DNA of 64,000 nt. It comes from Ricordea florida (taxonomy: Eukaryota; Cnidaria; Anthozoa; Corallimorpharia; Ricordeidae). The DNA is taken from positions 30,215,932-30,279,931 of the forward strand of contig OX453272.1 in assembly GCA_949710005.1 (NCBI GenBank). Reading direction: 5' to 3'. Numbering within the stretch: the first letter of the stretch is position 1; each line of letters starts with the position of its first letter. A program made the translations under genes and the position numbers. The notes under the pieces are model-generated. The model saw nothing but the letters and a program-made list of their open reading frames with translations. It was not told the origin of the DNA and searched no databases. Below are positions 46,454-64,000 of the stretch, piece after piece.

Positions 46454-49400
46454 ATGTATAAGTGGGGGGCTATGGAAAAATTGCCAGTGAAAGAGCTGAG
46501 GGCAATTGCTAAAAAAGCTGGAGTGAAGAGGTATAGTCAATTCAGAAAGGCTGAGCTCCTTGAAGTGTTGGCTGATGTTCAGCCGGAGAATTTAACAGTG
46601 AGGGTACTAAAAATCATATCCAAGAAACTTGGTACAAAAGGCTATGCTAAGATGCGTAAAACAGAACTTATCAATGCTGTTAGATCCACATCAGCATCTG
46701 AGGTTAATATTCCAATTCCAAAACCAATTAGGCCCATAACAAAGCCTGCTCGTGTTTCAAATAGGAAGGTCATTGATTTAGCTAAGAATGAAATTAAGAA
46801 GTTTACGGATTGGATAGAATCTTACGTTCCAGACCCGATCAAGAGGGCTGTGACTAAGAGATTAAGAGGCCTTAAGAAGAAGCTAACTAGCATTTTAGAA
46901 GAGCAACCTGATTATTTAATTCCTGAAAAACTCGAAACGGCCCTGAAAGGGTTTTTGAAGACATATATAATAAAGGGTAGAAGTGGCTATGACTCGACTT
47001 CGTTCCTGAAGAAGGTTAGATCACAGTTCTATGTATTAATTCGCAAACAGAGGAAGCCACTCAAATTGAAGTGCATATTATCATGTGGCTTCATAAGGAG
47101 GGACAATAGGAACAATAGTATTATTGAGTGGAGTGAAGGCTATTTTCATTCATTGGTGGAGACAGTAACAGCTTCAACAAACATATTTACTATGTTCGAT
47201 CGTATTGCAGATAGACTGATTGAATTGGTCCATAAATATGAGAATGAGCGATCTGGATGGGTATTTGATCATATTATAGACCTTCGTATCCACATAAACC
47301 CATTCCAACCGTTTTCTGGAAGTTCATATATCCCATTACCACCTAAATTGGCTGCCAAGAAGGCAATCATAAATGTTAAGAACAAGGAAGACCAGGAGTG
47401 TTTTAAATGGGCAGTAACGTCAGCTGTGTTCCCCAGAGAGAATCATCCTGAAAGGTTGAATAGAGAGATGAGAGAGAACTCTGAGAAATTCGACTGGTCA
47501 GGAATAGAGTTTCCAGTGGAAGCACTTAGTACAAACCAGATCGATAAGTTTGAAAGTGAGAATCCTTATGGGATAAATGTTTTTGGTTATGAGAACGACG
47601 AGCCAACAATAATCAGGCTTAGTAATAAGTTAGAAGTACGAAAGATAAACTTACTTATCATATCAACAGACGAGACAAATCATTACTGCTGGATTAAGAA
47701 CATGTCAAGATTGATCGAGAATAAACGTAAAGAGGCTCGTTATCATTGTTACAATTGTTTGAACTCATTTCGTTCAGTGAAATCACTGAAGACACACTTG
47801 GAATACTGTCTAGATAACGAAGCAGTGAAGGTGGAAATGCCGGTGAACGAGGACGGGAGCCCAAGGTATATCACTTTCAAAAATCATAACAGAAAGATGC
47901 AAGTCCCCTTCGTGATCTACGCGGACTTCGAGTGTTTCACGGAAAAGATAGACACTTGTTCACCGGACGATAGGGAGAGCTTCACGAACCAATACCAGAA
48001 ACACAAGCCATCAGGGTTCTGTTATTTTATTAAGTGTTTTGATGATGAGGTATTTGAACCCAAGCTCGTGATGCGTACAGCTAACTCATCTGAGGATGAT
48101 ATCCCCCAAATTTTCCAGGAAAGCTTAGAGGAGGACATTAAGGAGATCTATAAGCAATTCAAGTCTGAAAAGAGTCTTATAATGAGGATGAGTGATCATA
48201 GGAAACATAAGAATGCGACTCATTGCCACATTTGCGAGGGTGAATTGGGGGATGACAAGGTGATCGATCACTGCCATCTTACGGGTAGGTACAGAGGAGC
48301 GGCTCATAATGAATGCAATTTGAAATTCAAGGTCCCCAAGTTCTTCCCGGTCACATTTCACAATTTGTCTGGATATGACAGTCACTTGTTCATCAAGAAG
48401 CTTGGATTGACAGAAGGTAAGGTAAATTGCATTCCCCTCAATGACGAGAAATACATCTCATTTACAAAGGAGATTGTGGTCGATACCTTCAAGAAGGGGG
48501 ATGAGAAGGAGATTGAGATTAAACGCTACATTAGATTCATAGACAGCTTTAGATTCATGTCAAGTGGGCTAGCAAGCTTAGTGAGTAATTTACCAGAGTC
48601 CTCCCTAACAAACCTATCGGTTTTACATGGAGAAGAGATGGCTGTAGCTAGTAAGATGAACCATGAGAAGAGGATACTTCAAAGTATATTGGAGGACACT
48701 ACTGATTTTGATGTCAAAACAATGAGAATGGTTATACAAGAGTTCTATCAACGCCTTAATCGCCGTGCTGTTATTAATAGGAGAGAAATAAGGGCCTTTG
48801 TGGATGGAATTTTACCCTACTACAGGGAGGGAGAACAGCCCCCAGAGGAGGATGAAACGATAGGACCTGATGTAAAAGACAAGTGTCTAAACCTATTGGC
48901 TAGAAAGGGGGTGTTCCCGTACGATTGGTTCGATTGTTTTGATAAGCTACAAGTGTATCGTCTCCCACCCAAGGAGGAGTTCTATTCGAGGCTTTATGAT
49001 GTTGATATATCGGAGGAGGATTATCAACATGCTGAAACCGTGTGGGAAACTTTTGGGATGGAAACCTTCAGGGACTATCATGACCTGTACCTTAAGACGG
49101 ACGTACTCCTATTAGCCGATGTCTTTGAGAACTTCAGAGGCGTTTGTATGAATAATTATGGACTGGACCCCGCATGGTACTTTACTGCACCTGGATTAGC
49201 ATGGGATGCCACATTGAAAATAACAAAGGTGGAATTGGAGCTCTTGAGAGACCCAGACATGCTGATTATGATTGAGAATGGCATCCGAGGTGGGATCTCA
49301 ACAATTTCCACCAGGCACGGGAAGGCCAACAATCCGTACATGAAGGAGTACGATTCATCCCTACCTACAAAATACATTTCATATTTGGATGCAAACGGAC

Positions 49401-50581
49401 TGTATGGCCACGCAATGACCAAAGCACTACCAACTCACGGTTTTGAGTGGATGGATGACCAAGAATTATTAAACTGGAGGGATCATCCATGCATATTGGA
49501 AGTGGATTTGGAATATCCCCAACAATTGCACGACTTGCACAATGATTATCCATTAGCTCCAGAGAGGATGGACGCAAACGGGGTCGACAAGTTAATCCCG
49601 AATCTCATGGACAAAATAAAGTACATACTCCATCACGAAGCACTAAAACAGTACCTATCTCTAGGACTAAACCTAACCAAAGTACACAGAGGTATCAAAT
49701 TTGAAGAGTCAGAGTGGCTAAAGACTTACATCGACTTGAACACTAGTCTGAGGGCCAAAGCGGAGAATGACTTTGAGAAGAACTTCTTCAAACTAATGAA
49801 CAACTGCGTATTTGGGAAGACCATGGAGAATATCAGGAAGAGAGTGGACATTAAGTTGGTCACGAATGAGAAGCAGGCACGTAAATTAATCGTGAAGCCT
49901 AACTTCCAGCACAGGAACATCTTTTGCGAGGACCTAACCGCCTTCCACATGAAGAAAACGAAACTGGTCTTTGATAAGCCCATTTACTTAGGTTTATCCA
50001 TTCTGGATCTGAGCAAGACGACCATGTACGATTTCCATTACAACTACATAAAGCCAAAGTATGGAGAGAAAGCTAAGTTGTTGTTCACAGACACGGATTC
50101 TCTTGCATATGAGATACAAACCGAGGATTTCTATAAGGACATCAGCCCAGATGTTAGGGAAAAGTTCGATACCAGCAACTATCCCAAGGATCACCCATCG
50201 GGGATTGAGGTGGGAGTGAACAAGAAGGTTGGAGGCATGTTCAAGGATGAAGCCGGTGGTGAACAGATCACGGAATTTGTTGGTCTACGAGCCAAACTCT
50301 ATGCCTTCAGAACGGATAACCAAAGCGAAGTGAAGAAGTGTAAGGGGGTGAACAAGGCAGTTGTGAGCAAAAGTATAAGTTTTGATGATTACAAGACTTG
50401 CCTTTTCAGCGGCCAATCACAGAGAAGGAAGATGAATACCATCAGAAGCCATAATCACGATATATACACGGAAACCGTCAATAAGATTGCATTATCACGC
50501 GAGGACGACAAACGGGTGATAATGGAAGATGGGGTGCATACTTTCGCACATGGTCACTTTAGAACGCTATCTCAGGAATAA
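46454..50581 (+). CDS. polB: protein-primed-type DNA polymerase B with SAP/HeH-like repeats and an endonuclease VII-like insert
   Basis: A 1375-codon intact frame. Residues about 7-80 hold two helix-extended-loop-helix (SAP/LEM-like) repeats: KELRAIAKKAG...FRKAELLEVL and LKIISKKLG...MRKTELINAV. Near 430 there is a zinc-finger-like CYNC...H...C. At 489 YADFECF is exonuclease motif I. Near 590-625 CHICEGELGD, VIDHCHLTGRYRG and HNECN form a recombination endonuclease VII-like zinc domain. Near 880 YLKTD is exonuclease motif III. Palm motif A is LDANGLYGHAM (about 978), motif B is NNCVFGKTMENI (about 1115), and motif C is FTDTDSL (about 1211). It should replicate the element's linear DNA from a protein primer (family knowledge). 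ATG at 46472 starts exactly at the first repeat and may be the true start. An AATAAA lies 20 bases after the stop. Confidence 0.93.
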   Translation: MYKWGAMEKLPVKELRAIAKKAGVKRYSQFRKAELLEVLADVQPENLTVRVLKIISKKLGTKGYAKMRKTELINAVRSTSASEVNIPIPKPIRPITKPARVSNRKVIDLAKNEIKKFTDWIESYVPDPIKRAVTKRLRGLKKKLTSILEEQPDYLIPEKLETALKGFLKTYIIKGRSGYDSTSFLKKVRSQFYVLIRKQRKPLKLKCILSCGFIRRDNRNNSIIEWSEGYFHSLVETVTASTNIFTMFDRIADRLIELVHKYENERSGWVFDHIIDLRIHINPFQPFSGSSYIPLPPKLAAKKAIINVKNKEDQECFKWAVTSAVFPRENHPERLNREMRENSEKFDWSGIEFPVEALSTNQIDKFESENPYGINVFGYENDEPTIIRLSNKLEVRKINLLIISTDETNHYCWIKNMSRLIENKRKEARYHCYNCLNSFRSVKSLKTHLEYCLDNEAVKVEMPVNEDGSPRYITFKNHNRKMQVPFVIYADFECFTEKIDTCSPDDRESFTNQYQKHKPSGFCYFIKCFDDEVFEPKLVMRTANSSEDDIPQIFQESLEEDIKEIYKQFKSEKSLIMRMSDHRKHKNATHCHICEGELGDDKVIDHCHLTGRYRGAAHNECNLKFKVPKFFPVTFHNLSGYDSHLFIKKLGLTEGKVNCIPLNDEKYISFTKEIVVDTFKKGDEKEIEIKRYIRFIDSFRFMSSGLASLVSNLPESSLTNLSVLHGEEMAVASKMNHEKRILQSILEDTTDFDVKTMRMVIQEFYQRLNRRAVINRREIRAFVDGILPYYREGEQPPEEDETIGPDVKDKCLNLLARKGVFPYDWFDCFDKLQVYRLPPKEEFYSRLYDVDISEEDYQHAETVWETFGMETFRDYHDLYLKTDVLLLADVFENFRGVCMNNYGLDPAWYFTAPGLAWDATLKITKVELELLRDPDMLIMIENGIRGGISTISTRHGKANNPYMKEYDSSLPTKYISYLDANGLYGHAMTKALPTHGFEWMDDQELLNWRDHPCILEVDLEYPQQLHDLHNDYPLAPERMDANGVDKLIPNLMDKIKYILHHEALKQYLSLGLNLTKVHRGIKFEESEWLKTYIDLNTSLRAKAENDFEKNFFKLMNNCVFGKTMENIRKRVDIKLVTNEKQARKLIVKPNFQHRNIFCEDLTAFHMKKTKLVFDKPIYLGLSILDLSKTTMYDFHYNYIKPKYGEKAKLLFTDTDSLAYEIQTEDFYKDISPDVREKFDTSNYPKDHPSGIEVGVNKKVGGMFKDEAGGEQITEFVGLRAKLYAFRTDNQSEVKKCKGVNKAVVSKSISFDDYKTCLFSGQSQRRKMNTIRSHNHDIYTETVNKIALSREDDKRVIMEDGVHTFAHGHFRTLSQE

Positions 50582-50623
50582 CTTAAATATTTTACTAATA
50601 AAATATCACTAGACAAAGTTGGT

Positions 50624-51466
50624 ATGAATTATTATAACTCAGAATTACCTTATTCTAGCCTTGTCCAGTCTTTTCAGTCTTTGTTCAAGAAAGCCGATTT
50701 GGAATCTATGGAAGACTGTAAGCATGATAGTGCGTATAGGGATAACTCAGGGATTGTTATTTGTAGTCTCTGTAAAACTGAACTCGAATCGATGGACTAC
50801 TCTCAACACGAATGGGGGTACAACATTTCAGCCGTTAGATGTGATATTCGAAGATCTTCATCACCAAAGGGAGTTCGTACTGCATTTGAGAAATATAAAT
50901 TGGATGTGTCTCCTATGATGATGGATATCATAGAAGCCAAGTACAGAAAGATTCTCCAGTCTGAGTGTAATAAAGTTTTTCGCGGGCAGAATCGCGATTC
51001 TGTGGTGGCTTCATGCTTGTTTCATACATACCAAGAATTTGGTGAATATCGTACGTTAGGTTACATTAGAGGTTTGTTTGGACTCAAGCGAAAAGCTATG
51101 TTAAATGGTTTAACTATGTACTTGAAAACATTTCCAGAGGCGCGAACCAACTACATTACACCAGAGAAACTTATCCCCTGGATAATGAGACTTACTGGGG
51201 TTGATGAATCTCATCACAGACGTATTTTGTCCATTGCCAAGTACTTTGACGCGACATCAAAGATTCTTGAGCGTAGTAATCCCAATACAATTGCAGTGGG
51301 TGTTGTATTTTTTTACTTATGTCTTAACCGGGAGTATAAAAAGAAAATAGGTATGACAAAGCGAGTCTTTGCTAATAAAGCTAAAGTTTCGGATGTTACA
51401 TTAAGCAAGACACTTAATGAGATGGTTGACATCTCAGTGTCACTTAAGGACGTTATCAGGCGGTAA
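50624..51466 (+). CDS. TFIIB-like transcription initiation factor
   Basis: 280 residues. The N-terminus has a zinc ribbon of TFIIB type: CKH at about 27-29, then GIVICSLCKTEL, with DYSQHEWGYN just after, in the position of the EWR(x)F motif of TFIIB. Two cyclin-like helical repeats follow (about 90-180 and 185-275), with SVVASCLFHTYQ in the first. TIAVGVVFFYLC and a KVSDVTLSKTLNEM helix (recognition-helix-like) lie in the second. TFIIB bridges RNA polymerase II and TATA-bound TBP, and an element-encoded copy could direct transcription of its own genes (inference). The start follows an AT-rich TATA-like stretch (TTAAATATTTT). The last 27 bases overlap the 3' end of the convergent integrase gene. 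Confidence 0.75.
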   Translation: MNYYNSELPYSSLVQSFQSLFKKADLESMEDCKHDSAYRDNSGIVICSLCKTELESMDYSQHEWGYNISAVRCDIRRSSSPKGVRTAFEKYKLDVSPMMMDIIEAKYRKILQSECNKVFRGQNRDSVVASCLFHTYQEFGEYRTLGYIRGLFGLKRKAMLNGLTMYLKTFPEARTNYITPEKLIPWIMRLTGVDESHHRRILSIAKYFDATSKILERSNPNTIAVGVVFFYLCLNREYKKKIGMTKRVFANKAKVSDVTLSKTLNEMVDISVSLKDVIRR

Positions 51467-52429
51467 TTCAGTGTCTTGAGGTACAAACTGAAGTTCCTCG
51501 CGGACGAATCCTCGTCTTAGGCCTCCATCCAAATAATACAAAACTGGTTGACCCGGGGAAACCACAGTTCTAGCTAAATCATAAACTTCAAGGCTCCATA
51601 TAGGATCTGTAGCCCTTCGTTTGTCTCCACCTTCGTCCTCACCAGGGGCATACAGGTACCTGACTTCAACGTCTGGAGGCAACCTCTTCTCATCCAATCC
51701 CACAGGTCGCTTATACTGTGGAGGCTTAATATCAATAGCCTCCATTTTCAAAGCTTCCTCAGGCTCTTTACCAGTGATACGGGTCGGCTCGCTATTCAGA
51801 GTCTTCATGATAGCGGGCAATCTTTTCACCCAAACTCTGGATCGGTCACCACTCACCATCTCCTGAGCGTATTGATGGCTGAATAATTTCTCACCAATAG
51901 TCCGATTGGCTCTCTCAACAAAAGCTTGAGCTCGATGATTTCCAGCTTCACTCCGCTGGATGGTTACCTGGTGCTTATTCATCAGAGTTGTCACATTACC
52001 CTTGAATTCTGTGCCTGGATCCACTATTAATGTATGCGGCCATTTTAACTTACGGGCATAAATCCTCTCGAAGGCATTGGCGACTTCCTTACTGTCTTTC
52101 GAAGTCAATGCTTCAGCATCTTTGTATCTGGAAGCAATATCAATCACGACTAGCGCATAGCGATATGTTTTTCTTCTCACTGTATCGTGAGGAAGAAACA
52201 ACAAGTCCGCTTGATGGATTTGATTGGGATTATCCACACTCCAATGTGGTCTGGGTATATACTTGGGAGCTGGGAGATATATTTGCCACAAGGCTTGCTT
52301 TTCCAACCACTTTTTAGCCACGTTTTCACTGACCTTAGCCGCTCTGGCCAATTTGGGTATAGCTGAGTATCCTTTCCAGTATCCATCAGTGGAGTAATAG
52401 AACTGACTTAAAACATTGTCATTGGTCAT
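51440..52429 (-). CDS. int: retroviral/Polinton-type integrase (DDE)
   Basis: 329 residues, intact. The N-terminal part has a helical segment, LARAAKVSENVAKKWLEKQA. The RNase H-like catalytic core shows D75 (IHQADLLFLP), D137 (LIVDPGTEFKG) and E172 (NHRAQAFVERANRT), with 34 residues between the last two. NRT after the Glu is usual for Polinton and Ty3-type integrases. The C-terminal part (about 240-315) could be a chromodomain or SH3-like fold: GQPVLYYLDGG, RRGFVREEL. It would join the element's ends to host DNA. It is transcribed opposite to its neighbours, starting 26 bp from the capsid gene, with ATTATAA just upstream of its ATG. Confidence 0.92.
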   Translation of the reverse strand: MTNDNVLSQFYYSTDGYWKGYSAIPKLARAAKVSENVAKKWLEKQALWQIYLPAPKYIPRPHWSVDNPNQIHQADLLFLPHDTVRRKTYRYALVVIDIASRYKDAEALTSKDSKEVANAFERIYARKLKWPHTLIVDPGTEFKGNVTTLMNKHQVTIQRSEAGNHRAQAFVERANRTIGEKLFSHQYAQEMVSGDRSRVWVKRLPAIMKTLNSEPTRITGKEPEEALKMEAIDIKPPQYKRPVGLDEKRLPPDVEVRYLYAPGEDEGGDKRRATDPIWSLEVYDLARTVVSPGQPVLYYLDGGLRRGFVREELQFVPQDTELPPDNVLK

Positions 52430-52455
52430 TTATAATCAAGACTCTGTGTATTTAA
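52430..52455. promoter_or_regulatory. 26-bp divergent promoter region between integrase and capsid genes
   Basis: This is the only sequence between the two start codons. It reads TATAATCAAGAC toward the integrase side and GTATTTAA directly against the capsid ATG. Both starts therefore have A/T-rich TATA-like motifs within a few bases, and either core promoter must overlap the opposite coding region. Confidence 0.5.
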
Positions 52456-53691
52456 ATGGAAGGGATATCAGACATTCTTGATCCAAATCGTGTTCCCAGG
52501 ATGCGTAAAGGTTTGAAGGCGGAGGCGTCATTAAATCGGATCACGTTAAATCCCTCATCAGCCAATCCTGGTGATACATTATTCATTGAGATACCAAAAC
52601 TGGCGGATAACCTGGTGATTGTGCCTGGCAGCGTGTACATCACTTTCGATATGACTATAACAGGCCACAAGAATAACACCCTTGTTAATAACTTGAGAAG
52701 GAACCTAGTTTCACGATGCAGGGTTCTATTCGGGGGTGAAATCATAGATGACCTTAATAGGTTTGATTTGTTCAAGACTTATCACGATTTGTTTTTACCA
52801 GAGACTGATCGTGAGAACAGATTGAGACAGGGTACATCATCTGAGAATGTGAGGAAGATTAGAACCAATGCCGGGGACAAAGTTAGTTCAAATGCAAAGG
52901 ATAATATTCTAGCTGCGATCCATAACACCAGGTACGCAATACCATTGGACCATACAATACTGAAAGATCATGGAGTCTTCTATCCAAAAGCATTACCACA
53001 TCAACTCAAATTTGAAATAACTCTAGCTCCAGTTTCTGATGTCGTCGTTTACTCAAACATAGAAACACCACCTGGTTACAATTTAACAAATATGGAGATG
53101 GAGTATCGCTGCATATCAAGTAGTCAATTGGCCAATCAAGCTCTTGCCTCGTATCATACTGGAAGGGTGTTCGAGTATGAGAGAATACTTCTTCACAAAA
53201 CGTTTAAAATCTCTGAGGCTAATGATGAAATGATTAATGAGCATATTAACGTGCCTAGGAAATCTATGACTGGGATACTATGTATTTTCACGGCTCCTTA
53301 TGCAGCAGGTGCTAGGGACTCTGAGATGTTTGCCAGCCCAAAAATCACATCGGTTATAATTGACAGCGATGGAGTGCCAAACCGACTTTATTTGAAAGGT
53401 ATGATACCCAGTGATTTATGGCAGTCCATAATTAAAAGAGTTGGTGTCAGTGATTCCATCAAGGAGTTTAATTTCTATACGAATAAGTTTGCTTTGTGGA
53501 TTGACCTGAGGAGTTACCCGGATAATAATATTCATGGAAACGGTTTGAAGCTCACTAGTACTCGTGATGGTATAAGACTTGCGATTAACAGGGAAAAAAC
53601 TGGAAGCAGGGTTCTTACCTGCCACATGTTCGCAGTAGCTGATGCGGTCATGGCCATCATGAATTCTGATCTAAAAGAAATAGTGTACTGA
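52456..53691 (+). CDS. probable double jelly-roll major capsid protein
   Basis: 411 residues, no signal peptide or membrane segment, beta-rich pattern. It has LVIVPGSVYITFDMTIT and NNLRRNLVSRCRVLFGGEII near the N-terminus. LFLPETDRENRLRQG, FEITLAPVSDVVVYSN and YRCISSSQLANQALA come later. The run of alternating hydrophobic strands after a basic NLRRNLV segment recurs in proteins encoded at this place in cnidarian Polinton-like elements, next to the packaging ATPase. The assignment rests on gene order, size and pattern. No structure comparison could be run. It starts at TTTAAATG. Confidence 0.62.
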   Translation: MEGISDILDPNRVPRMRKGLKAEASLNRITLNPSSANPGDTLFIEIPKLADNLVIVPGSVYITFDMTITGHKNNTLVNNLRRNLVSRCRVLFGGEIIDDLNRFDLFKTYHDLFLPETDRENRLRQGTSSENVRKIRTNAGDKVSSNAKDNILAAIHNTRYAIPLDHTILKDHGVFYPKALPHQLKFEITLAPVSDVVVYSNIETPPGYNLTNMEMEYRCISSSQLANQALASYHTGRVFEYERILLHKTFKISEANDEMINEHINVPRKSMTGILCIFTAPYAAGARDSEMFASPKITSVIIDSDGVPNRLYLKGMIPSDLWQSIIKRVGVSDSIKEFNFYTNKFALWIDLRSYPDNNIHGNGLKLTSTRDGIRLAINREKTGSRVLTCHMFAVADAVMAIMNSDLKEIVY

Positions 53692-53697
53692 GTAAGG

Positions 53698-54324
53698 ATG
53701 AACGAACTGAGAGACAAGATCCCATTCAATTGCATCATCACTGGGCCCACTAATTGCGGAAAGACTCAATATTTGGTGGACCAGCTTCGAGGGCATTTTA
53801 GAGGCGCATTCGAGTATATTGTGCTGATATGCCCGACCTATTCTTATAACAAGACTTACAGAGGCTTTGCAAAGGGGGACAAACGATTCTTGGTACTTTC
53901 ACCAGATGCGAGTGATCAGGACGAAATCAACGAGTTGTTAACACTTTGCTCCTCATTCCTATCAGGTGAGAACGCACTCATAATCCTGGATGATTGCGCT
54001 GTGTCCAAAGACTTGAAGAAGCGTTCAAACAAATTTATCGACCTGGCATTCTCTGGGAGGCACACCAGGATATCCGTGTGGGTTCTCACCCAACAGCTCA
54101 CATTGATCGCGAAGCCTTTCAGAGAGAATGTTGCATGTGTAATATCATTTTATAACCCATGTCAAATCGCCATGAAGATGCTATTCGAGGACTATGGTGG
54201 GACTATGGACGCTGAAGCTCGTAAAAGGCTCGAGCCACTCAAAAAGGAAAAGTACGCCAGACTCTGCTTCTGCCTTCGGCACCCATTCCAAAGTTATTTA
54301 GAAATACCAGCGCCTATGGTATAA
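53698..54324 (+). CDS. FtsK/HerA-type (A32-like) DNA packaging ATPase
   Basis: 208 residues. Walker A is GPTNCGKTQ (about 17-25) and Walker B is ALIILDDC (about 94-101). A WVLTQQ sensor-like strand lies near 127-132, and RENVACVISFYNPCQ follows. Length and motif order match the genome-packaging ATPases of Polintons, adintoviruses and large DNA viruses, which pump DNA into preformed capsids. The gene starts 6 bases after the capsid stop. Confidence 0.88.
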   Translation: MNELRDKIPFNCIITGPTNCGKTQYLVDQLRGHFRGAFEYIVLICPTYSYNKTYRGFAKGDKRFLVLSPDASDQDEINELLTLCSSFLSGENALIILDDCAVSKDLKKRSNKFIDLAFSGRHTRISVWVLTQQLTLIAKPFRENVACVISFYNPCQIAMKMLFEDYGGTMDAEARKRLEPLKKEKYARLCFCLRHPFQSYLEIPAPMV

Positions 54325-54326: not shown

Positions 54327-54821
54327 ATGTCAACTGCCGAAGAGATATTGAACGGTGAAAACTCAGTGAGTAACACCCCACCAGACGATGAGGTGGAGTC
54401 AAAGAGAGAGGCACTTTCAATATTGGCTTGCTTAGGGTCTACGAAGGAATATACGGGCACTGATATGGATTTCAAGGATACACTTAAACTATCAGAGAAG
54501 GATGTGGAGAAGTATTACAAGAGATACCAAGTCGTCTCTGGCAAAAAGATCACCAATGCATTCATGGACTCGTCCTTGCGGTTGACTGCTCAGGTTGTTA
54601 GCAGGTTAATACAAATAGATGACATAGATGCTCTTGTGAGTGACTGGAAGAGCGACCAGTTGATACTAAAGGAGATCTCAGAGTTATCTGGGTTACTTGT
54701 ACTTAAGGGTGGTAGACTAACAGCACTACTATCAGCAATCATTCACGTTGGGAAGCACTTCAAATTTCGAGAGCCTAGTGAGGCCGTCCCCCAGTTAGTT
54801 CCAGCACAACCTGAGCAGTAA
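54327..54821 (+). CDS. uncharacterised element protein, 164 aa
   Basis: The gene starts 2 bases after the ATPase stop. It has an acidic, polar N-terminus (about 35 residues) followed by helices with conserved-looking hydrophobic heptads (TLKLSEKDVEKYYKRYQVVS, LTAQVVSRLIQIDDIDALVS). The C-terminal segment, LSGLLVLKGGRLTALLSAI, is moderately hydrophobic. No protease triad or nucleic-acid-binding motif is evident. Close coupling to the ATPase and capsid genes suggests a structural or assembly role (inference). Confidence 0.7.
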   Translation: MSTAEEILNGENSVSNTPPDDEVESKREALSILACLGSTKEYTGTDMDFKDTLKLSEKDVEKYYKRYQVVSGKKITNAFMDSSLRLTAQVVSRLIQIDDIDALVSDWKSDQLILKEISELSGLLVLKGGRLTALLSAIIHVGKHFKFREPSEAVPQLVPAQPEQ

Positions 54822-54922
54822 AATTAAGATTACTTGACACTCCTAATACAAACACCTATTAGGAAACGCAGTAAACTAAGACTACTTGACATTCCTAATA
54901 GAAACACCTATTAGGAAACTCA
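54819..54922. repeat. two tandem 52-bp repeats, each with a CCTAATA/TATTAGG hairpin
   Basis: Each unit has AAG(A/C)(T/C)TACTTGACA, then a hairpin. Hairpin 1 spans 54841-54864 (8-bp arms, loop CAAACACC). Hairpin 2 spans 54892-54917 (9-bp arms, loop GAAACACC). They lie between the stop at 54821 and the start at 55015. A third copy of the hairpin is at 56044-56068. Confidence 0.85.
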
Positions 54923-56103: not shown

Positions 56104-56502
56104 ATGTCTGAGGAAAACACTGAGCAGATCACTAAGGAGCCTAATACTAAACCTAAGATCAAAGACCCTAAGAGAATAGAGGCTGGTAAGAAGTTATCAG
56201 CCAATAATAAGAAGGCCAGAGAAGCTTTGAAGCGTGAGCAGGATAGAGAGGCCAAGGTACTCAAAGATGAAGGCACCACTTCAATGGATGCTAAGGCCTG
56301 GATCCCTAGTCTAACATTCCAGAATGTGCTCACACTCGGGTCCATTGGGCTCGCTGCCTATGCCCTATTCACAAATTATAGGAGTAGGATTGCTGACTTG
56401 CGTGTACCAGCCCACACCTTCAATCCCCCTCCCGTCAGAAACATCGATGATAGTATGAGAGCGGCTGAACACGAAATTAATTTAAAAGATGACTTGATGT
56501 AA
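56104..56502 (+). CDS. basic protein with one membrane segment
   Basis: 132 residues. The first 60 are highly charged (Lys/Glu-rich, helical). A hydrophobic segment follows at about 74-88 (VLTLGSIGLAAYALF), then a short polar tail with PPPVRNIDDSMRAAEH. It looks like a DNA- or capsid-associated membrane anchor. No known family was recognised. First of four small genes packed within 1.4 kb. Confidence 0.7.
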   Translation: MSEENTEQITKEPNTKPKIKDPKRIEAGKKLSANNKKAREALKREQDREAKVLKDEGTTSMDAKAWIPSLTFQNVLTLGSIGLAAYALFTNYRSRIADLRVPAHTFNPPPVRNIDDSMRAAEHEINLKDDLM

Positions 56503-56509: not shown

Positions 56510-56728
56510 ATGGCTGAGAATAAGCTCGTAAAGACAGTTACTGACTCTGCAGTACTCATTGGTCTCGCAGCCGCTGTGGGTTATGTGGGCAAAAAGGCCC
56601 TGAGAGAGTCATTCATTGGTGATCCATCGTCCAGTATCATGAATTATGCTAAATGGGTCGCTGTTTTAGCGGCAAGCATGTATCTCAAAACCTATTTAGA
56701 GGAACAGAAAATACTACCCAGTTACTGA
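56510..56728 (+). CDS. small membrane protein, 72 aa
   Basis: It has two hydrophobic helices (about 10-26, SAVLIGLAAAVGYVG, and about 46-58, AKWVAVLAASMYL) joined by a polar loop. It starts at GTAAATG, 7 bases after the previous stop. Probably a virion or assembly membrane protein (inference). Confidence 0.65.
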   Translation: MAENKLVKTVTDSAVLIGLAAAVGYVGKKALRESFIGDPSSSIMNYAKWVAVLAASMYLKTYLEEQKILPSY

Positions 56729-56733
56729 TAATA

Positions 56734-57102
56734 ATGGCCAAATTGATTTTTGCTGATAAGAAATTCAGGACAGATTTATTACTACATATCAAAAAAGCCT
56801 TTGTAGATGATTTGATGTATGATGATGATGTCGAAGGAGAAGAATATGAAGAAGACGAAGGCTTCATCAAGATAGACAAGTATCATAAAGACGTAATTTC
56901 TGGACTACCTACAAAAGACATGGTGAAATGGTATTATGGATTCGATCATTCACTTCACCATGACACTGAGCCGAAATTGAAAGATTACATAACAATCGAA
57001 GACAAGCGAAAATTCTTCATACTACCACTTATCACACTCACAAGCTTACTAACTATTACATTATACATACTACCAAAAATGTTTAAGAGAAAAGATAAGT
57101 AG
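56734..57102 (+). CDS. acidic protein with C-terminal membrane anchor
   Basis: 122 residues from the ATG at 56734, chosen because it follows the previous stop by 5 bases. A longer frame from 56653 would overlap the previous gene. The N-terminal part is soluble, with a stretch of Asp and Glu near residues 29-46. FFILPLITLTSLLTITLYIL near the end is a clear transmembrane helix, followed by a short basic tail. Type II/tail-anchored topology is likely. Family unknown. Confidence 0.7.
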   Translation: MAKLIFADKKFRTDLLLHIKKAFVDDLMYDDDVEGEEYEEDEGFIKIDKYHKDVISGLPTKDMVKWYYGFDHSLHHDTEPKLKDYITIEDKRKFFILPLITLTSLLTITLYILPKMFKRKDK

Positions 57103-57109: not shown

Positions 57110-57520
57110 ATGGCAAGTATAGCGATCATGCTTGGAGGGGCAGTCCTCAATGCAACAGCGCTAGCCTTCATTGGTGGGAATTATATAGCAAAGGCCCTCA
57201 GTGGGTCATCATCCACTGATCTCCAACTCGAAAGGGAGAGGCATGACAAAGCAATGGAGAAGTACCAGAAAGATTATGCTGAGTACCATGAAAAGAGGCT
57301 GGCTTATATTGACTTTATGAACAATAGGAAGAGCGATGCGAACCAGGCCTCTGAGAACATATCAAAGACGGATGAAGCGCTGAAATTGTACAGTCAAATG
57401 GGTAATCCCCCCAAGATCTCAGACTATTACAGACCGAATTCAGATCAAAGAATGGGTGAGATGGCCTATGTCTCCGGTGGGATGTTAGCCCTGGGATATC
57501 TCACTAGCAAGTGGCTGTGA
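57110..57520 (+). CDS. membrane/coiled-coil protein, 136 aa
   Basis: It has an N-terminal hydrophobic segment (AIMLGGAVLNATALAFIGG, about 4-24). A charged coiled-coil-like helix follows (LQLERERHDKAMEKYQKDYA, about 38-62). A glycine-rich C-terminal hydrophobic stretch (YVSGGMLALGYLTS) ends the protein. It starts at TATAAATG. Probably a minor virion component (inference). Confidence 0.7.
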   Translation: MASIAIMLGGAVLNATALAFIGGNYIAKALSGSSSTDLQLERERHDKAMEKYQKDYAEYHEKRLAYIDFMNNRKSDANQASENISKTDEALKLYSQMGNPPKISDYYRPNSDQRMGEMAYVSGGMLALGYLTSKWL

Positions 57521-57556: not shown

Positions 57557-58513
57557 ATGGCAACTGCTTATCCTGATCCCGATCTCGATCCAACTACATT
57601 AAATGAACTAGGGGCCACTGGTGGTGGTGATGATGGTGATGATGGGAATGAAACGCTCTATCTTAGCCCAATAACAAAGACATCCACCACTCGTGGTGAC
57701 CCTGATATGGAAGAGGAAACATCATTCACGGGAGATAATTTCGGTGAAAGAGTCCCATTGATAGGAGAAATGGAGATCGACCAAGATGAAGCTTGGGCTA
57801 AGATCAAAGCAAGATTCCCCAAAGTTGATACTTCCAAGTTTACAGCTCGTCTGAATCAATTCAAGCAAGTAGTTGTGAAATTGATTAGATCTAATTCCAT
57901 CCCTTATGAGTTCTTCAAAGGCGATGAAGTGAATGATAGATTGCCGGATACCATAAAGAATAGTCTCGGGCCAAGCGCAGAAGAAATTGTAGAATCCAAT
58001 GATGGTGAGATAACTAAGAAAAAAGGGCTCGTTAGTAGATTGAAGGAGACGCTAAGATTCCATCGAGATAAGTCACTGAATACCCCAGAGGAAGAAAACC
58101 AAATAAAGACTCTCGAGAGACAAATTGGTGAACAAGAGCAAGAGATAGCTAACTTGGAGGGGGAGAATGAGCAAATACAAGAACGAATGTTATTGCGAGA
58201 GCGTGTGAAAGTCATCTTCAAGAAATATGGGTTCACGGCGTTTGCCGTTGTGAGTGCCGTTAGTGTGGTCATTGGCGTTATCGTGTCTAATCTTTCCAAA
58301 GGCCTATCCAAATTGGGTAAAGGCGTTGGGGACGGGCTGAAGACCATCGGTAAGAAACTGGGCGAGATACTGCCTGGAATGGTGGGGGCGATCGTGAGCT
58401 TTCTGTTCAAGACTGCTGGGGAGGTCATCTCTTTACTAGGGAAGAACGCTTGGCTATTGATTGTAGCTGTTGTTGTGTACTTCATAGAGAAATTAAAGAA
58501 GAGGCGTCGTTGA
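57557..58513 (+). CDS. large membrane-active protein with coiled coil and glycine-rich hydrophobic C-terminus
   Basis: 318 residues. The N-terminus is acidic and Gly/Asp-rich. A central coiled coil occupies about 175-215 (IKTLERQIGEQEQEIANLEG). The last 100 residues alternate hydrophobic and Gly/Lys-rich amphipathic helices: FTAFAVVSAVSVVIGVIVSN, LSKGLSKLGKGVGDGLKTIG, then AWLLIVAVVVYFIE and a basic end KLKKRRR. This composition resembles membrane-disrupting or membrane-bound virion proteins. It recurs in cnidarian elements of this type, but no function has been shown to my knowledge. A 36-bp spacer precedes the gene. Confidence 0.72.
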   Translation: MATAYPDPDLDPTTLNELGATGGGDDGDDGNETLYLSPITKTSTTRGDPDMEEETSFTGDNFGERVPLIGEMEIDQDEAWAKIKARFPKVDTSKFTARLNQFKQVVVKLIRSNSIPYEFFKGDEVNDRLPDTIKNSLGPSAEEIVESNDGEITKKKGLVSRLKETLRFHRDKSLNTPEEENQIKTLERQIGEQEQEIANLEGENEQIQERMLLRERVKVIFKKYGFTAFAVVSAVSVVIGVIVSNLSKGLSKLGKGVGDGLKTIGKKLGEILPGMVGAIVSFLFKTAGEVISLLGKNAWLLIVAVVVYFIEKLKKRRR

Positions 58514-58519
58514 ATGTAA

Positions 58520-58699
58520 ATGTTGAGCTATTGCGTCAAAGAGAGAAAACAAACTGAATGCGCGCCTGGCAGTGAAACATACACTAAAACCTCCAAGGGT
58601 AGGTATATGATGAAGTGCAAATGTGCCATCTGTGGTATAACCAAGACTCGATTCCTCTCAGAAGCTGAATATAGAAATTTAAAGAGGGCCAAAAGATAG
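58520..58699 (+). CDS. small zinc-knuckle-like protein, 59 aa
   Basis: It starts at GTAAATG, 6 bases after the previous stop. It has SYCVKERKQTEC, then KCKCAICGITKTRF and a basic C-terminus. Proteins of this form (DUF5679-like) in large DNA viruses and Polinton relatives normally carry a CxxC in the first knuckle. Here the second Cys position reads Glu (CVKE), so metal binding by that half is doubtful. A single ribbon formed by the other cysteines is possible. Confidence 0.65.
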   Translation: MLSYCVKERKQTECAPGSETYTKTSKGRYMMKCKCAICGITKTRFLSEAEYRNLKRAKR

Positions 58700-58705
58700 T
58701 ACAAA

Positions 58706-58933
58706 ATGTTGAGCGTTACCATGTACGAGTCTGAAACTAGAGTGTACTTGGATCCTCCCCTGGACAAGGTTCGGGAGATACAACTCCTGGATTGTAGGAT
58801 ACCCAAACGATTGGTGAATTTCAAGGACCGACAGGGATTACTCAAGGAGGATAATCACCCCTTAATAATAATCGAGCCTGGTACATATTCTCTGCGCAGT
58901 ATCCACGCGATATTTCTCAATGATACGGATAAT
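58706..58933 (+). pseudogene. probable penton/minor capsid protein, 5' part, cut by a LINE
   Basis: 76 codons from ATG 58706, including LSVTMYESETRVYLDPPLDK and VREIQLLDCRIPKRLVNF, both beta-strand-like. The natural frame ends where the LINE tail begins. The rest of the gene continues in the same phase at 63332. The short length when the two parts are taken together (about 218 residues) and the position fit a single jelly-roll penton protein of Polintons (inference). Confidence 0.65.
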
Positions 58934-59213
58934 TTAACAACAACAACAACAACAACAACACGCACTTTATTTTAAAAAACCAATACAGAGACCATAGTAG
59001 CCCGCAATTAGCATAGCTATTCTAGGCGGGCTACTTAATTTTGGAATGGATGTTTAAAACAAAAAAAATTATGTACAACAACAGAGAAAAAAAAAATATA
59101 TATATATATTTAACAATATTAAGAAAAAAAGAAGAAATGGAAAACAAATTATTAATAACGACAGTAAAGAAAAGAGAAAATAGAACCAAATTAACTTTTA
59201 AGACTTAGGGGAA

Positions 59214-62200
59214 CTATTTAATATTTAATAGCCGCATGTGCTTAGAAAGGTCAATGTAGCGCATTTCAACATTCATCTCCTCAGTTCCAAGAATATTTAG
59301 AAGTAAATCATGCAATTTACGTTTGAAGGGTGCTTTCCTAAGCCCACAAAGTTCAGGAGGGATACCATTCCATATTTTAGCACCAATTCTTGAAAATGAA
59401 AATAACTGTTGATTTGTTCTTGACATTTTTATGTGGAGGTTCTCAGCTTGTGAGAATCGTGTGGGGTAGGGGTGAATCTTTTCGGAACGAGTAAATAGAG
59501 TGGAAATATTAGGTGGAGCACATCGATTAGCAGCATCATGTACCAAAGAGGCAACCGATTTAAAATAAAGCAATTTTACTGGTAAGATTCGGGAACTAAC
59601 AAAAAGAGGAACAGTGTGAGATTTGTAGTCTAAGAAATGCATTAAACGAAGAACACGCTTTTGTAAAATGACGATTTTGTTTATGTAAGTATTTGCAGCT
59701 TGACCCCAAGCAACGAGACCATAAGAAATATAGGGTTCGATTAGGGAGTGGTAAATATTTAAAAGTGTGGTAAACGGCACCAGATGCCTAAGCCTAGCAA
59801 TAATGCCAATTCCTTTGCTTATTTTCGTCGAGATATAATCAATGTGGTACTTCCAAGAGAGAGAACCATCAATTAGAACTCCAAGGTACTTCACATATGT
59901 TTTACGCTCGAGAGATACTAATTGTTTAGAATTGTTATCAAATATTTTAAGGTTGACTTCGTGGCGTAGTTTGCGTTGATAAGAATGGAAAATAACAAAG
60001 TTAGATTTAGCCGTATTGAGAGATAGTTTATTTGAATTTAGCCACTCACACAATTTAAACAATTCCTCATTAGCAATGATCTCGAGATTTTTTAGGTCTT
60101 TTTCTGCCAATAACAAGTTTGTGTCATCAGCAAATAAATAGAACTCAAATTTACTAGATGAACGATACATGTCATTTACATAAATTAAGAAAAGAAGAGG
60201 TCCAAGTACAGAGCCTTGAGGGACACCGCAGACTATTCTTTCTTTACGAGAAACAGAAGAACCAATTTGCGTTGATTGTGTTCTCCCTGACAAATAAGAT
60301 GCGAACCAGCTATTGATTATTCCTCTAAATCCATAATGGTGCAGCTTGTATAACAAAATAGTGTGATCCACCGTGTCAAAGGCCTTTTTTAGATCAATAA
60401 AAATGCCGCAAGAATATAATCCTTTATCCATATTATTTTGAATTTTGCTTAGAATATCCAAGATTGCATGTTGAGTAGAATGATTCTCTCTAAAGCCATA
60501 TTGCGAATTAAAGAATGTGTCATTCATGTCTATAAATGACTTAAGACGTTTATACATTAACTTTTCGAATATTCGATTGAAAACGGATAATAACGAGATA
60601 GGGCGATAATTGCCTGGATCAGTTTCGTCATCCGCTTTGTAAATCGGAGTTACTTTAGCATGTTTCAACTGACGGGGATAGATACCACACGAAATAGACA
60701 TATTCATTAGACCAGCTAAAACTTGAGATATGATTTGACGCGCAGATTTTAGCAGACACACTGGACAAGAGTAAAGTCCATACGTTTTATTTGATGGGGT
60801 GTTTATAATTTCCATTTCGATTTCAAAAGGGGTGACATTATGAAAGTAAAAAGAATTGGGAAAATTTGAATTCCCTAGATAATCTTTAAAATCTCTAGTG
60901 GATGGTGTTATGTTATTTGCAAGCTTAGGTCCTACAGATGCGAAGTAGTTGTTCATTATATTCGCCATTTCAGGCAGACTTTGGGTTGTACCTGAACTGT
61001 TGGGAAGCTGGAGTCTTGATGCCATCTTTGTCTTCCTATTTCGGTTAATCAGAGTATTAATACCCTCCCATGTCTTTTTCATGTTATTTAGGTTCCTACT
61101 AAAATAGGCTTGGTAGTAAAGTTTTTTACTAAGGCGGGAAAGGCTTAGAATTTTGTTCCTATACAACTTATATTTCGCCGTATCAGCAGAATGGTAAAGA
61201 TCATTTTTAATTTTTATTGACTTTCGTAATCCCCTAGATATCCATGGCTTAGAAAGTTGCTTGGCCTTACGTTTCGACATGGCTTTGATGGGAGCATGTT
61301 TATTGACAAGTTTATTAAGTTTATTGTAAAAAGAAGAAAAGCATTTGTCCACGGAGCCATTCGTGATCAAACTGTCCCATTTGATTTGCGAAATATCATT
61401 GACGAAATCTTCTTCCGAAAAGTTTGAATAATCACGAGTTTTAACACCTTGATAGAATGACCTTAGTGGAGGAGAGTGGATAAAACAAAACTGAGAGTAA
61501 TGGTCACTGATGTCCGAAATAATATTTCCACTGGAGAGATTACCGTCAAGTCTGTTAACAATTATATTATCAATGAGTGTAGCAGAGTTATTATAGACTC
61601 TTGAAGGTTTATCAATTAGTGGGAGAAACGAGTAACTTTGTATGGACAAGAGAAAATCATGAGAAAAGCCATTAGTTTCAGCCTTGAGGAGATCAATGTT
61701 GAAATCGCCCATGATATAGATAGGTTTATTAGAGGAACTTAGTCTTTCGAGTGTCATATCAAAATACGTTTGAAATTTTTCAGGAGAATTATGCTGCCGG
61801 TAAATTACACCACAAACAATATTTTTTCCTTGCAGGGATTCGACCTCAATCCACAAAGCTTGGAAAGCCTCATTAGACGTTTTTTCCAGAACGATGTAAT
61901 GTAGAGAACAATTGATATACATGCCAACCCCTCCACAGGAAAGAGGTGTTGGCACGTATTCAAACTGATAATTAGGTATGTGTGGATTGAAGTCAATTCC
62001 GGTCAAGTTTGTAATTTTAGTTTCAGTTACTCCGATTATATCAAAGTTATAGTCAAGCTCTTCTAACAGATGTGTTTGAAAATTTTCGAGGTTTCGTCGT
62101 AGACTCCGCACATTATTGTGTAATATCGAGAAATATGTCTGATTAGCAGTTCGTGCTAGGGTATTCTTAAATGTGCTAAAGCTGTGAGGTGAGAAATATT

Positions 62201-62225
62201 GGCTTCGGATTTTTTGATTTTCCAA
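59214..62225 (-). CDS. LINE ORF2: apurinic-type endonuclease and reverse transcriptase
   Basis: 1003 codons, uninterrupted. The endonuclease domain (about 30-260) shows ILHNNVRSLRRN, DIIGVTETKI, YIMGDFNIDLL and ISDHYSQF. The reverse transcriptase (about 500-790) shows PGNYRPISLLSVFNRIFEKL, NSQYGFRENHSTQHAI, FIDLKKAFDTVDH, GVPQGSVLGPLLF and LFADDTNLLL (catalytic FADD). No RNase H domain follows. Domain order and the microsatellite 3' tail fit the CR1/L2/Jockey group. The first codon of the listed frame is not ATG-verified. Confidence 0.93.
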   Translation of the reverse strand: MENQKIRSQYFSPHSFSTFKNTLARTANQTYFSILHNNVRSLRRNLENFQTHLLEELDYNFDIIGVTETKITNLTGIDFNPHIPNYQFEYVPTPLSCGGVGMYINCSLHYIVLEKTSNEAFQALWIEVESLQGKNIVCGVIYRQHNSPEKFQTYFDMTLERLSSSNKPIYIMGDFNIDLLKAETNGFSHDFLLSIQSYSFLPLIDKPSRVYNNSATLIDNIIVNRLDGNLSSGNIISDISDHYSQFCFIHSPPLRSFYQGVKTRDYSNFSEEDFVNDISQIKWDSLITNGSVDKCFSSFYNKLNKLVNKHAPIKAMSKRKAKQLSKPWISRGLRKSIKIKNDLYHSADTAKYKLYRNKILSLSRLSKKLYYQAYFSRNLNNMKKTWEGINTLINRNRKTKMASRLQLPNSSGTTQSLPEMANIMNNYFASVGPKLANNITPSTRDFKDYLGNSNFPNSFYFHNVTPFEIEMEIINTPSNKTYGLYSCPVCLLKSARQIISQVLAGLMNMSISCGIYPRQLKHAKVTPIYKADDETDPGNYRPISLLSVFNRIFEKLMYKRLKSFIDMNDTFFNSQYGFRENHSTQHAILDILSKIQNNMDKGLYSCGIFIDLKKAFDTVDHTILLYKLHHYGFRGIINSWFASYLSGRTQSTQIGSSVSRKERIVCGVPQGSVLGPLLFLIYVNDMYRSSSKFEFYLFADDTNLLLAEKDLKNLEIIANEELFKLCEWLNSNKLSLNTAKSNFVIFHSYQRKLRHEVNLKIFDNNSKQLVSLERKTYVKYLGVLIDGSLSWKYHIDYISTKISKGIGIIARLRHLVPFTTLLNIYHSLIEPYISYGLVAWGQAANTYINKIVILQKRVLRLMHFLDYKSHTVPLFVSSRILPVKLLYFKSVASLVHDAANRCAPPNISTLFTRSEKIHPYPTRFSQAENLHIKMSRTNQQLFSFSRIGAKIWNGIPPELCGLRKAPFKRKLHDLLLNILGTEEMNVEMRYIDLSKHMRLLNIK

Positions 62226-62479
62226 GTTTGTATCAGGATTAAGATTACTCTGAATGTTTAAAGTAAAAAGATCTAAATCGTGAAGGCTACGGAGCTTATC
62301 TAAGTACTTTTTTGAGGGTAGATCACTTTTGAGACTATTGTTAAACTGGCCATGAGATCGAATGATGTCGACATTCGAATATGGCAGAGCGCTGAATATA
62401 GATTTGTTGGAGCGGTAAACGCGTCTATCAGTTAAGCCTATCTTTAAATGTTATTATTATAAGTAAATACTTAGCTATT

Positions 62480-63269
62480 TCAGCATCCATTCTGCAATTT
62501 GAGCAGATCATCAAGATCCTTAACCTTGATAGCGCGGGACGAGGCATCTTTTCTCAAATAAACAGCCGAACCCTTCGACCAACAGTACTGGTAGCAATGT
62601 TGCTCTTTAAACTTCCTAGACTCGAATAGAACTGTTTGCATCCGTGGTGACAAATGATCAAAGATTCTCGCCGCTCTCAACGAGGCATCTTCAGGAAGGC
62701 CAATAGCCACCGGATTTACTCCACACGCATCCTTACGATGATTCATGACAGTCTCTTTGACTAAGCGCCGGACGAATCTACAAACTATTGGTTTTGGCTT
62801 GCCGTTGTTGTTCCTGCTAGGGACGCGATGAGCTGTGTCAATGTCACTGATCAATACATCAGCTCCCATTTCTTTAAAGAGTTTTAGACAAAGCATACTT
62901 GTCGAGGCAGTCGATTCATTTGGTGTTTCAGGAACGCCTACGATTTTAACGTTGTACTGGAAGCTGTATTCTTGGAATTCGTCGACAGCGTTTCCAATGG
63001 CGTCAATCTTTATCTTTAGCTCGGTCAGTTTAGCGCTTAATTAAGCGTTGAAGATCCTTTTTAGCCTCGGTTTTAAAGCGATTAAAGTCGTCATATTCCT
63101 TACTCAGGAACTCTACGCTGCGGGCGCCTTCTTCGCTAGCTGGACTGACTGCTCCGTTGCTGTGCAGTTCAATCGTCTCTTTCAGTTTAGCTATCTCATC
63201 TGCCATCGTAGATAGTTGGGCTTTAAGTGCATTATTTTCTCTCTTTAAATTCGCAACTGACTCAGGCAT
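62480..63269 (-). pseudogene. LINE ORF1 with one frameshift
   Basis: The N-terminal piece from ATG 63269 to the stop at 63030 is a coiled coil (VANLKRENNALKAQLSTMAD, then KFLSKEYDDF-like helices). The C-terminal piece (about 62480-63040, next frame) has NVKIVGVPETPNEST, then DIDTAHRVPSRNN and KPIVCRFVRRLVKETVM. This is the RRM-like fold of L1/CR1-type ORF1 RNA-binding proteins. An indel near 63030-63045 separates them, so this copy likely cannot make full ORF1p. Confidence 0.7.
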
Positions 63270-63331
63270 ATTGAAAGGTTTGTAAACACGGATATAAAAC
63301 ACAAAACACACCACAAACAAAAAAGAAATGC

Positions 63332-63763
63332 AATATTGAAGGAGCTCACAAGTGTACGTCCATCTTGGTCAACCCACCGCTGACCTCTAATAATGCTAAG
63401 CTATCGATCATTGAGACTGATACTGTTGACTATCTGTACTCCAACAAGAGCTACAACATTAAACTTACGAGAGGACTACAAATTGGACTGGGGGTGCCAG
63501 AAATCATAAAACCTGGCAAGTTATACCCCATAAATGTCCAGATCAAAGAGCCCCTGAGACTTACGTGCAGTCTAGTGGATAACCGGTCATCCTATATGAA
63601 TAATGCTCGATTTGTAGGTCCCGTGAAGATCTCCCCCTCATACCTACTCGCCAACATACCCTCTCAGGATTATCCAGTCATCCCGGCTCAGAAATTGAAG
63701 ACTCCCATAAATCACTTCGATCTGAGCATCCTCGACAGTGAATGGATAAAAAATTGGATTTAA
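63332..63763 (+). pseudogene. probable penton/minor capsid protein, 3' part
   Basis: 143 codons continuing the 58706 gene in phase. It has YLYSNKSYNIKLTRGLQIGL, IKPGKLYPINVQIKEPLRLT and a C-terminal PINHFDLSILDSEWI, with a regular strand pattern of a jelly roll. There is no ATG at its start. The stop is at 63761-63763. Confidence 0.65.
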
Positions 63764-63797
63764 AGGGGTCTAGCATTACTGTTAGTTTAAGATTCAG

Positions 63798-64000
63798 ATG
63801 ATGGATGAACACTATAAACCAAATGGGATGCTTAAAGATGCAAGTTCGATATGTAGCACCATATCTATTGCCCTACTATCGGATGGATTAACCAGCTACC
63901 TTATTAGAGTAAAAAATAGAGTTGGTCTTCCAATGTTAGTGGCAAGTGGAGTAATGGGCTTCACATCCGTTACATGCAATCAAATTTCCAAACGTTTCAG
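63798..64000 (+). CDS. partial gene at window end, unknown
   Basis: ATG at 63798 (a second ATG follows at 63801) opens at least 67 codons that run off the window. The protein has two moderately hydrophobic stretches, ICSTISIALLSDG and LPMLVASGVMGF, so it may be a small membrane protein. It shows that the virus-like element continues beyond the right edge. Confidence 0.55.
   Translation, partial: MMDEHYKPNGMLKDASSICSTISIALLSDGLTSYLIRVKNRVGLPMLVASGVMGFTSVTCNQISKRF

What the first reader, a model, noticed from the sequence alone, without database searches (positions are those of the whole stretch)
46454..64000. Largely intact Polinton/adintovirus-like element with a complete morphogenesis module
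Polymerase B, integrase, packaging ATPase, candidate capsid proteins and about eight accessory genes lie in one compact intronless block with mostly open frames. The accessory set (TFIIB-like factor, SAP/HeH-EndoVII polymerase, membrane-protein cluster) differs from the textbook Polinton layout and may define a distinct cnidarian lineage.
Basis: partly seen in the sequence, partly recalled or inferred. Interest (0 to 1): 0.85.

Follow-up and report, generated by a model that had tools for sequence, protein, structure and literature searches.

The report
Broken virus-like element, mosaic capsid gene
A virus-like DNA element of the Polinton kind sits in a eukaryotic genome with both its ends still recognisable, but a jumping gene has broken one of its likely shell genes, and its main shell gene has a different history from the genes beside it.

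Summary
The observation largely holds. PolB, integrase, packaging ATPase and a double-jelly-roll capsid gene lie in one compact block. The element has both ends: a 340-bp terminal inverted repeat (10 mismatches) starting AGTAGT, and a 5-bp target duplication. It runs from window 46152 to 2,962 bases beyond the window. It is not intact: a LINE splits the minor-capsid candidate (about 58934-63389), and a terminal frame has a stop that is sense in 4 of 4 other copies. The capsid model is nearer to PBCV-1, iridovirus and ASFV than to mavirus or adenovirus hexon. Polinton enzymes joined to other capsid types are already in print, so the kind is known.

New is the mosaic. The genome holds at least 101 places matching this capsid and 122 matching this integrase, both ranked, cut lists; only this element is on both. 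Against its nearest examined integrase relative, synonymous divergence jumps from 0.15 to saturation across 26 bp. Three of five integrase relatives nevertheless carry a similar capsid, so the donor is open. All 325 capsid pairs tested have dN/dS below 1 (median 0.31), which suits spread by particles but is weaker than in fish Mavericks. The host was not identified.

The parts
46147..46151 (.). left copy of 5-bp target duplication AAAGA
   Evidence: chance of a 5-bp match at one fixed place in local DNA 0.0014
46152..46491 (+). left terminal inverted repeat; partner is L009:2623-2962 beyond the window; 340 bp, 10 mismatches, K2P 0.030; tip AGTAGTTGC; covers the first codons of PolB
46454..50581 (+). 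family B DNA polymerase, 1375 aa: Rho_N/SAP-like repeats, candidate OTU-like Cys316/His410, EndoVII-like insert, Exo I-III and Pol A, B, C motifs
   Evidence: motif patterns recalled
50624..51466 (+). TFIIB/Brf-like protein, 280 aa
   Evidence: PF00382 E 0.025 below cut-off, in 1 of 5 members; 7 of 8 weak PDB profile hits (E 0.045-0.98) are TFIIB or the TFIIIB 50-kDa subunit
51440..52429 (-). RVE integrase, 329 aa, D137 and E172 spaced by 35
   Evidence: PF00665 32.2 bits, cut-off 32.6; 122 scored places in own genome, itself included
52456..53691 (+). major capsid protein, 411 aa, double jelly roll of giant-virus type by model; codons 1 to about 360 have a different history from the genes on either side
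53698..54324 (+). A32-type packaging ATPase, 208 aa, Walker A GPTNCGKT
   Evidence: PF04665 46.5 bits
54327..54821 (+). conserved protein of unknown function, 164 aa
   Evidence: homologue in 5 of 5 copies
54821..54922 (+). two tandem copies of a 52-bp repeat between genes
55015..55821 (+). 268-aa protein of unknown function; lacks the C-terminal tail seen in 6 of 6 database relatives
56104..56502 (+). 132-aa protein, hydrophobic segment by eye
   Evidence: 5 of 5 copies
56653..57102 (+). 149-aa protein, C-terminal hydrophobic segment by eye
   Evidence: 4 of 5 copies, N-terminal part only
57110..57520 (+). 136-aa protein, strongly conserved (82-91%)
   Evidence: 5 of 5 copies
57557..58513 (+). 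318-aa protein, C-terminal hydrophobic segments by eye
   Evidence: 5 of 5 copies
58520..58700 (+). 59-aa DUF5679 protein
   Evidence: PF18930 27.7 bits, cut-off 27; found in 0 of 5 other copies at E<=0.001
58706..58933 (+). first piece of the minor-capsid (penton-like) candidate, interrupted by the LINE
58934..63389 (-). LINE retrotransposon (endonuclease + reverse transcriptase 59214-62225, ORF1-like 62480-62896), microsatellite at 58936; edges approximate (5-bp repeat ATAAT at 58929 and 63390, not significant given the offsets searched); not part of the element
63390..63763 (+). second piece of the minor-capsid candidate
   Evidence: 56 database relatives, 47 of them 204-213 aa
63798..64000 (+). 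start of a frame resembling, by eye, part of the next (201-aa) protein, running out of the window; that protein and a further frame of about 520 codons with an in-frame stop follow in L009

Best explanation
A defective provirus of a Polinton-type double-stranded DNA virus with a giant-virus-type double-jelly-roll capsid, and a mosaic of element families found in the same genome. Likely working of its functional ancestors: integrase inserts the linear genome, making a 5-bp duplication; PolB copies it from the terminal repeats, primed by its own N-terminal part; ATPase packages it into a capsid of MCP plus minor capsid protein; and particles, not only jumping within a nucleus, spread the family. 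When two families meet in one cell their genomes recombine, so that capsid genes move between replication backbones. Shown here: anatomy, ends, lesions, capsid fold model, copy families, dN/dS below 1, gene histories in conflict. Inferred: priming by the N-terminal part, particles, reinfection, and recombination during co-infection.
Confidence: 0.75

Rival explanations
1. The same provirus, but the mosaic arose by gene conversion between integrated copies in the host's chromosomes, not by recombination of virus genomes in infected cells.
For: At least 101 and 122 places over many contigs give ample templates; the segment is about 1.1 kb, a size plausible for conversion.
Against: Low dS beside high-dS neighbours is seen in further genes (TFIIB, 136-aa and 201-aa proteins), and a second copy, L015, changes at the MCP/ATPase border and stays different to the end of its 4.2-kb stretch, which looks more like crossing over between genomes. 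Not decisive.
Confidence: 0.3
2. A self-synthesising transposon that spreads only inside the nucleus, its capsid genes being inherited relics.
For: High copy number in one genome; no exogenous relative found; capsid dN/dS higher than integrase dN/dS (0.31 against 0.145).
Against: MCP, ATPase and 136-aa protein keep dN/dS well below 1; 89 of the 101 listed MCP places have no stop inside, though these are best hits.
Confidence: 0.12
3. A true adintovirus (adenovirus-like hexon, OTU-type PolB, chromodomain integrase).
For: PolB with the Cys/His pair of a candidate OTU-like domain and an RVE integrase.
Against: MCP model nearer to giant-virus MCPs than to adenovirus hexon; no chromodomain in the Pfam scan. 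Neither excludes it.
Confidence: 0.07
4. An artefact: assembly joining of different elements makes the mosaic.
For: The element lies among many similar copies.
Against: It lies in a 48.6-Mb contig, between one pair of terminal repeats with one target duplication; the genes found keep the same order in 5 of 5 other copies; the change falls inside the MCP gene without a frame break.
Confidence: 0.04

Closest known systems
Meldvirus Meld23486 and similar chimeras (PMC11071296; section 16 and passages read)
   Same: Polinton/adintovirus-type PolB and RVE integrase joined to capsid proteins resembling those of poxviruses or megaviruses
   Different: Described there from assembled contigs; here a provirus with ends, duplication and many relatives in one genome, and evidence of mosaic capsid genes among them. 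Direct sequence comparison was not possible with the tools
Sea anemone Polintons such as P-3_NV and the Hydra Polinton (PMC4028283, PMC4642659; passages read)
   Same: Hydra Polinton MCP matched only PBCV-1 VP54 in HHpred; two sea anemone Polintons were called possibly chimeric, with a PLV-type MCP on Polinton enzymes
   Different: Sequence relation to this element not tested; chimerism there is inferred between virus groups, here between families inside one genome
Vertebrate Mavericks (PMC8097293; passages read)
   Same: Terminal repeats with (AGT)2 end motif, intronless genes, purifying selection on capsid genes
   Different: 6-bp duplications there, 5 bp here; dN/dS about 0.001 there in cyprinid fish, 0.15-0.31 between copies here by a different method; copy numbers mostly low there
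Adintoviruses (definition from PMC11071296, section 16)
   Same: PolB plus RVE integrase plus capsid module
   Different: Capsid protein modelled as giant-virus type; no recognised chromodomain

Membership tests
Polinton/Maverick | family B DNA polymerase with exonuclease and polymerase motifs | tested here: met
   Pfam PF03175 was not listed for this protein at E<=1
Polinton/Maverick | RVE-type integrase | tested here: met
   PF00665 E 1.3e-7, 32.2 bits against cut-off 32.6
Polinton/Maverick | packaging ATPase | tested here: met
   PF04665 46.5 bits, cut-off 22.8
Polinton/Maverick | double-jelly-roll major capsid protein | tested here: met
   (predicted structure)
Polinton/Maverick | single-jelly-roll minor capsid protein | tested here: inconclusive
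   gene broken in this copy; model of relative P0124 borderline
Polinton/Maverick | adenovirus-type maturation protease (identifiable in 74% of Polintons, PMC4028283 passages) | tested here: inconclusive
   no protease family at E<=1 in the ORFs, nor at E<=0.1 in those
Polinton/Maverick | terminal inverted repeats with (AGT)2//(ACT)2 ends | tested here: met
   motif from PMC8097293 passages
Polinton/Maverick | short target duplication (6 bp in vertebrate Mavericks) | tested here: met
   present but 5 bp, in 2 of 2 copies whose both ends were found
Adintovirus | PolB with N-terminal OTU-like domain | tested here: inconclusive
   Cys316 and His410 motifs only; not modelled
Adintovirus | hexon reciprocally recognisable by BLASTP | not testable with these tools
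   no named adintovirus hexon sequence was available
Adintovirus | integrase with C-terminal chromodomain | tested here: inconclusive
   no chromodomain at E<=1 in Pfam scan
Meldvirus with giant- or poxvirus-like capsid | PolB and integrase of Polinton type with capsid protein structurally nearest poxvirus or megavirus proteins | tested here: met
   description

The most novel reading that the evidence does not exclude
Capsid genes circulate as exchangeable cassettes among co-resident families of endogenous double-jelly-roll viruses in one genome, so that a replication backbone repeatedly changes its coat, much as serotypes change, and the genome's many copies act as the reservoir.
Probability: 0.35. 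Interest if true: 0.75.

Novelty: new variant of a known kind. Interest (0 to 1): 0.55.

Why it matters
Whether Polinton-type elements spread as viruses or as transposons is an old question. A genome with well over a hundred copies, constrained capsid genes, recognisable ends and conflicting gene histories makes it testable by counting: recombination and selection can be mapped gene by gene over all copies. It also shows how a giant-virus-type capsid is combined with Polinton replication enzymes.

Tried and rejected
Intact element: rejected for this copy (LINE, in-frame stop, shortened 268-aa protein). LINE as part of the element: rejected, because it interrupts a frame that is whole in relatives. 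Absence of terminal repeats, as the window alone suggested: overturned by the right flank. One search printed no rows at all, not even the direct repeats, and is not used. Mosaic as mere selection bias of a capsid-based search: argued against by the control on 25 other copies, the integrase-based search and L051. A simple two-family picture, with one capsid donor family, did not hold: integrase-near copies carry at least two capsid types; my confidence in the best explanation was lowered from 0.78 to 0.75 for that. L030 first looked like an opposite recombinant; one search showed frame-shifted, misaligned codons (dN above dS), so it was dropped and the numbers recalculated. Three of 30 loci were left out of the MCP count for length change or masked bases, L030 as the fourth. 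For minus-strand loci the orientation was wrong; that result is discarded, one search replaces it. The 5-bp repeat at the LINE edges is not evidence, as many offsets were searched. The 268-aa protein found no family; a single-strand-binding role is a thought from memory only. IMG/VR searches found nothing. A PolB phylogeny with named references could not be made. The host test (GFP family) and the genome count of terminal repeats did not complete. The PDB profile search with the minor-capsid alignment gave only two hits at E 0.18 and 0.26, a ribosomal and an iron-transport protein.
Full report
What is there. The window is a piece of a 48.6-Mb contig of a 537.8-Mb genome. From 46454 rightward lie long intronless frames: PolB, a TFIIB-like protein, a minus-strand integrase, the MCP, an A32-type ATPase, then smaller proteins. 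The MCP passes Pfam's Capsid_N cut-off (24.7 against 24 bits); of the 56 aligned sequences, this one included, 20 match that family at E<=0.001. PolB carries Exo I, II, III and Pol A, B, C motifs, a Cys/His pair that could belong to the OTU-like protease domain described for Polinton polymerases (PMC11071308, abstract and passages), two Rho_N repeats and an EndoVII-like insert. The motif patterns are recalled.

Ends. In the window alone no inverted repeat was found. The right flank has it: 46152-46491 pairs with bases 2623-2962 beyond the window, 340 bp with 10 mismatches, K2P 0.030. The tip AGTAGT matches the (AGT)2 end motif of Mavericks (PMC8097293, passages), and AAAGA flanks both ends (chance 0.0014 at one fixed place in local DNA). 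Of five other copies whose surroundings were fetched, one showed repeats at both ends within the stretches: 278 bp, 97.8%, the same tip, ACAGA on both sides, span 16,368 bp; the other four did not. This element is 20,811 bp with the LINE. The repeat includes the first codons of PolB at the left and of a minus-strand Cys-rich frame at the right, so both terminal genes start inside it.

Damage. A LINE of about 4.5 kb lies at about 58934-63389 and splits a frame whose 56 database relatives are single frames, 47 of them 204-213 aa. Both pieces find homologues in 5 of 5 other copies. A frame of about 520 codons beyond the window holds a stop where 4 of 4 other copies have a sense codon. The element is a defective provirus.

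Copies and selection. The MCP finds 737 proteins at E<=0.001 in the protein database (120 listed) and 101 scored places in its own genome, itself included, a lower bound; 89 of 101 have no stop inside. The 30 loci fetched are the 30 best of those 101. After dropping 3 for length change or masked bases and L030 for frame shifts, 26 remain; 4 of 26 have stops. MCP dN/dS is 0.31 in the median (325 of 325 pairs below 1), integrase 0.145 (24 near-complete copies, 276 of 276), ATPase 0.21 (26 near-complete copies, 324 of 324 pairs with dS above 0.02). Barreat and Katzourakis read constraint in fish Mavericks as spread by particles, but with dN/dS near 0.001 (PMC8097293, passages); here the constraint is weaker, pairwise values include decay after insertion, and best hits favour intact copies.

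Mosaic. Against the MCP-nearest copies this element has dS 0.22 in MCP codons 1-360, 0.99 in integrase and 1.02 in ATPase (L030 still in). The step lies at the 5' edge of the gene and near codon 360. At fourfold sites the differences are 0.169, 0.466 and 0.441, against 0.131, 0.164 and 0.196 between the other copies. As a control every other copy was put in the same place: the integrase/MCP ratio is 0.81-1.52 for 25 of them and 4.59 here (L030, 0.14, is the artefact); the ATPase/MCP ratio is 4.72 here, 0.88-2.66 for 24 others and 4.76 for L015. L015 is a second mosaic with its step at the MCP/ATPase border. An integrase search gave 122 scored places, itself included, with relatives up to 94% identical; only the window element is on both lists within 3 kb, both lists being ranked and cut. 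Five of the 122 were fetched: integrase dS 0.15-0.70. Two have a distant MCP (61 and 64% identity; dS saturated and 1.83), two a similar one (79%; dS 0.22 and 0.35), and the fifth matches in parts (78 and 83%; dS 0.40). The closest by integrase, L051, has TFIIB dS 0.08, integrase dS 0.15, a saturated MCP, and ATPase dS 0.80. So the integrase-near copies themselves carry at least two capsid types, which points to exchange but leaves open which family gave this capsid segment. Against five copies of the MCP-nearest set the gene-by-gene dS also alternates: TFIIB 0.18-0.28, integrase 0.91-1.19, MCP 0.15-0.30, ATPase 0.78-0.99, 268-aa protein 1.3-1.7, 136-aa protein 0.28-0.54, 201-aa protein 0.23-0.37, PolB saturated in 4 of 5.

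Comparison with print. Chimeras of Polinton enzymes with other capsid types are described: sea anemone Polintons with a PLV-type MCP (PMC4642659, passages), meldviruses with pox- or megavirus-like virion proteins (PMC11071296, section 16 and passages), cnidarian MCPs outside the main Maverick-Polinton cluster (PMC10120064, passages) and a Hydra Polinton whose MCP matched VP54 alone (PMC4028283, passages). Searches touching exchange or cnidarian Polintons (20 of 31 and 5 of 5 papers listed) showed none on exchange between families inside one genome by title or start of abstract; full texts were seen only in the parts named, so absence from print is not claimed.

Verdict. A known kind of element, in a version with a giant-virus-type capsid, damaged in this copy, and a mosaic.

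Noticed in passing
G000, 154 matches to PF03175: The same genome holds many other PolB genes, several close together on contig C8 near 21.37-21.40 Mb, apparently of other element families.
   Followed up: no
window 50624-51466: The TFIIB-like gene has dN 0.11-0.18 at dS 0.18-0.28 against five copies, and dS 0.08 to L051, as if it were shared with both sets of copies and evolving fast.
   Followed up: partly
L009:2325-2678 minus: Cys-rich repeat protein (C-P-H ... Y-C-K-x-C-G-G-S units) starting inside the right terminal repeat with the same first ten residues as PolB.
   Followed up: partly
protein P0059: One MCP relative (60% identity) stands for 4,980 member sequences in the protein database, hinting at very high copy numbers elsewhere.
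   Followed up: no
L043:1-4669: Remains of another, inverted element of the same kind (integrase, MCP, ATPase fragments at 43-71% identity, stops in several) lie beside the copy on contig C7.
   Followed up: no
window 44621-45478 minus: Intronless rhodopsin-type receptor frame (7tm_1, 82 bits) just left of the insertion; a frame that looks similar by eye lies at the far right of L009.
   Followed up: no
window 8818-9556: Minisatellite of 23-bp units, 32 copies, overlapping several open frames.
   Followed up: no
window 15997-19275 minus: Open frame of 1,092 codons without Pfam match at E<=0.1.
   Followed up: no
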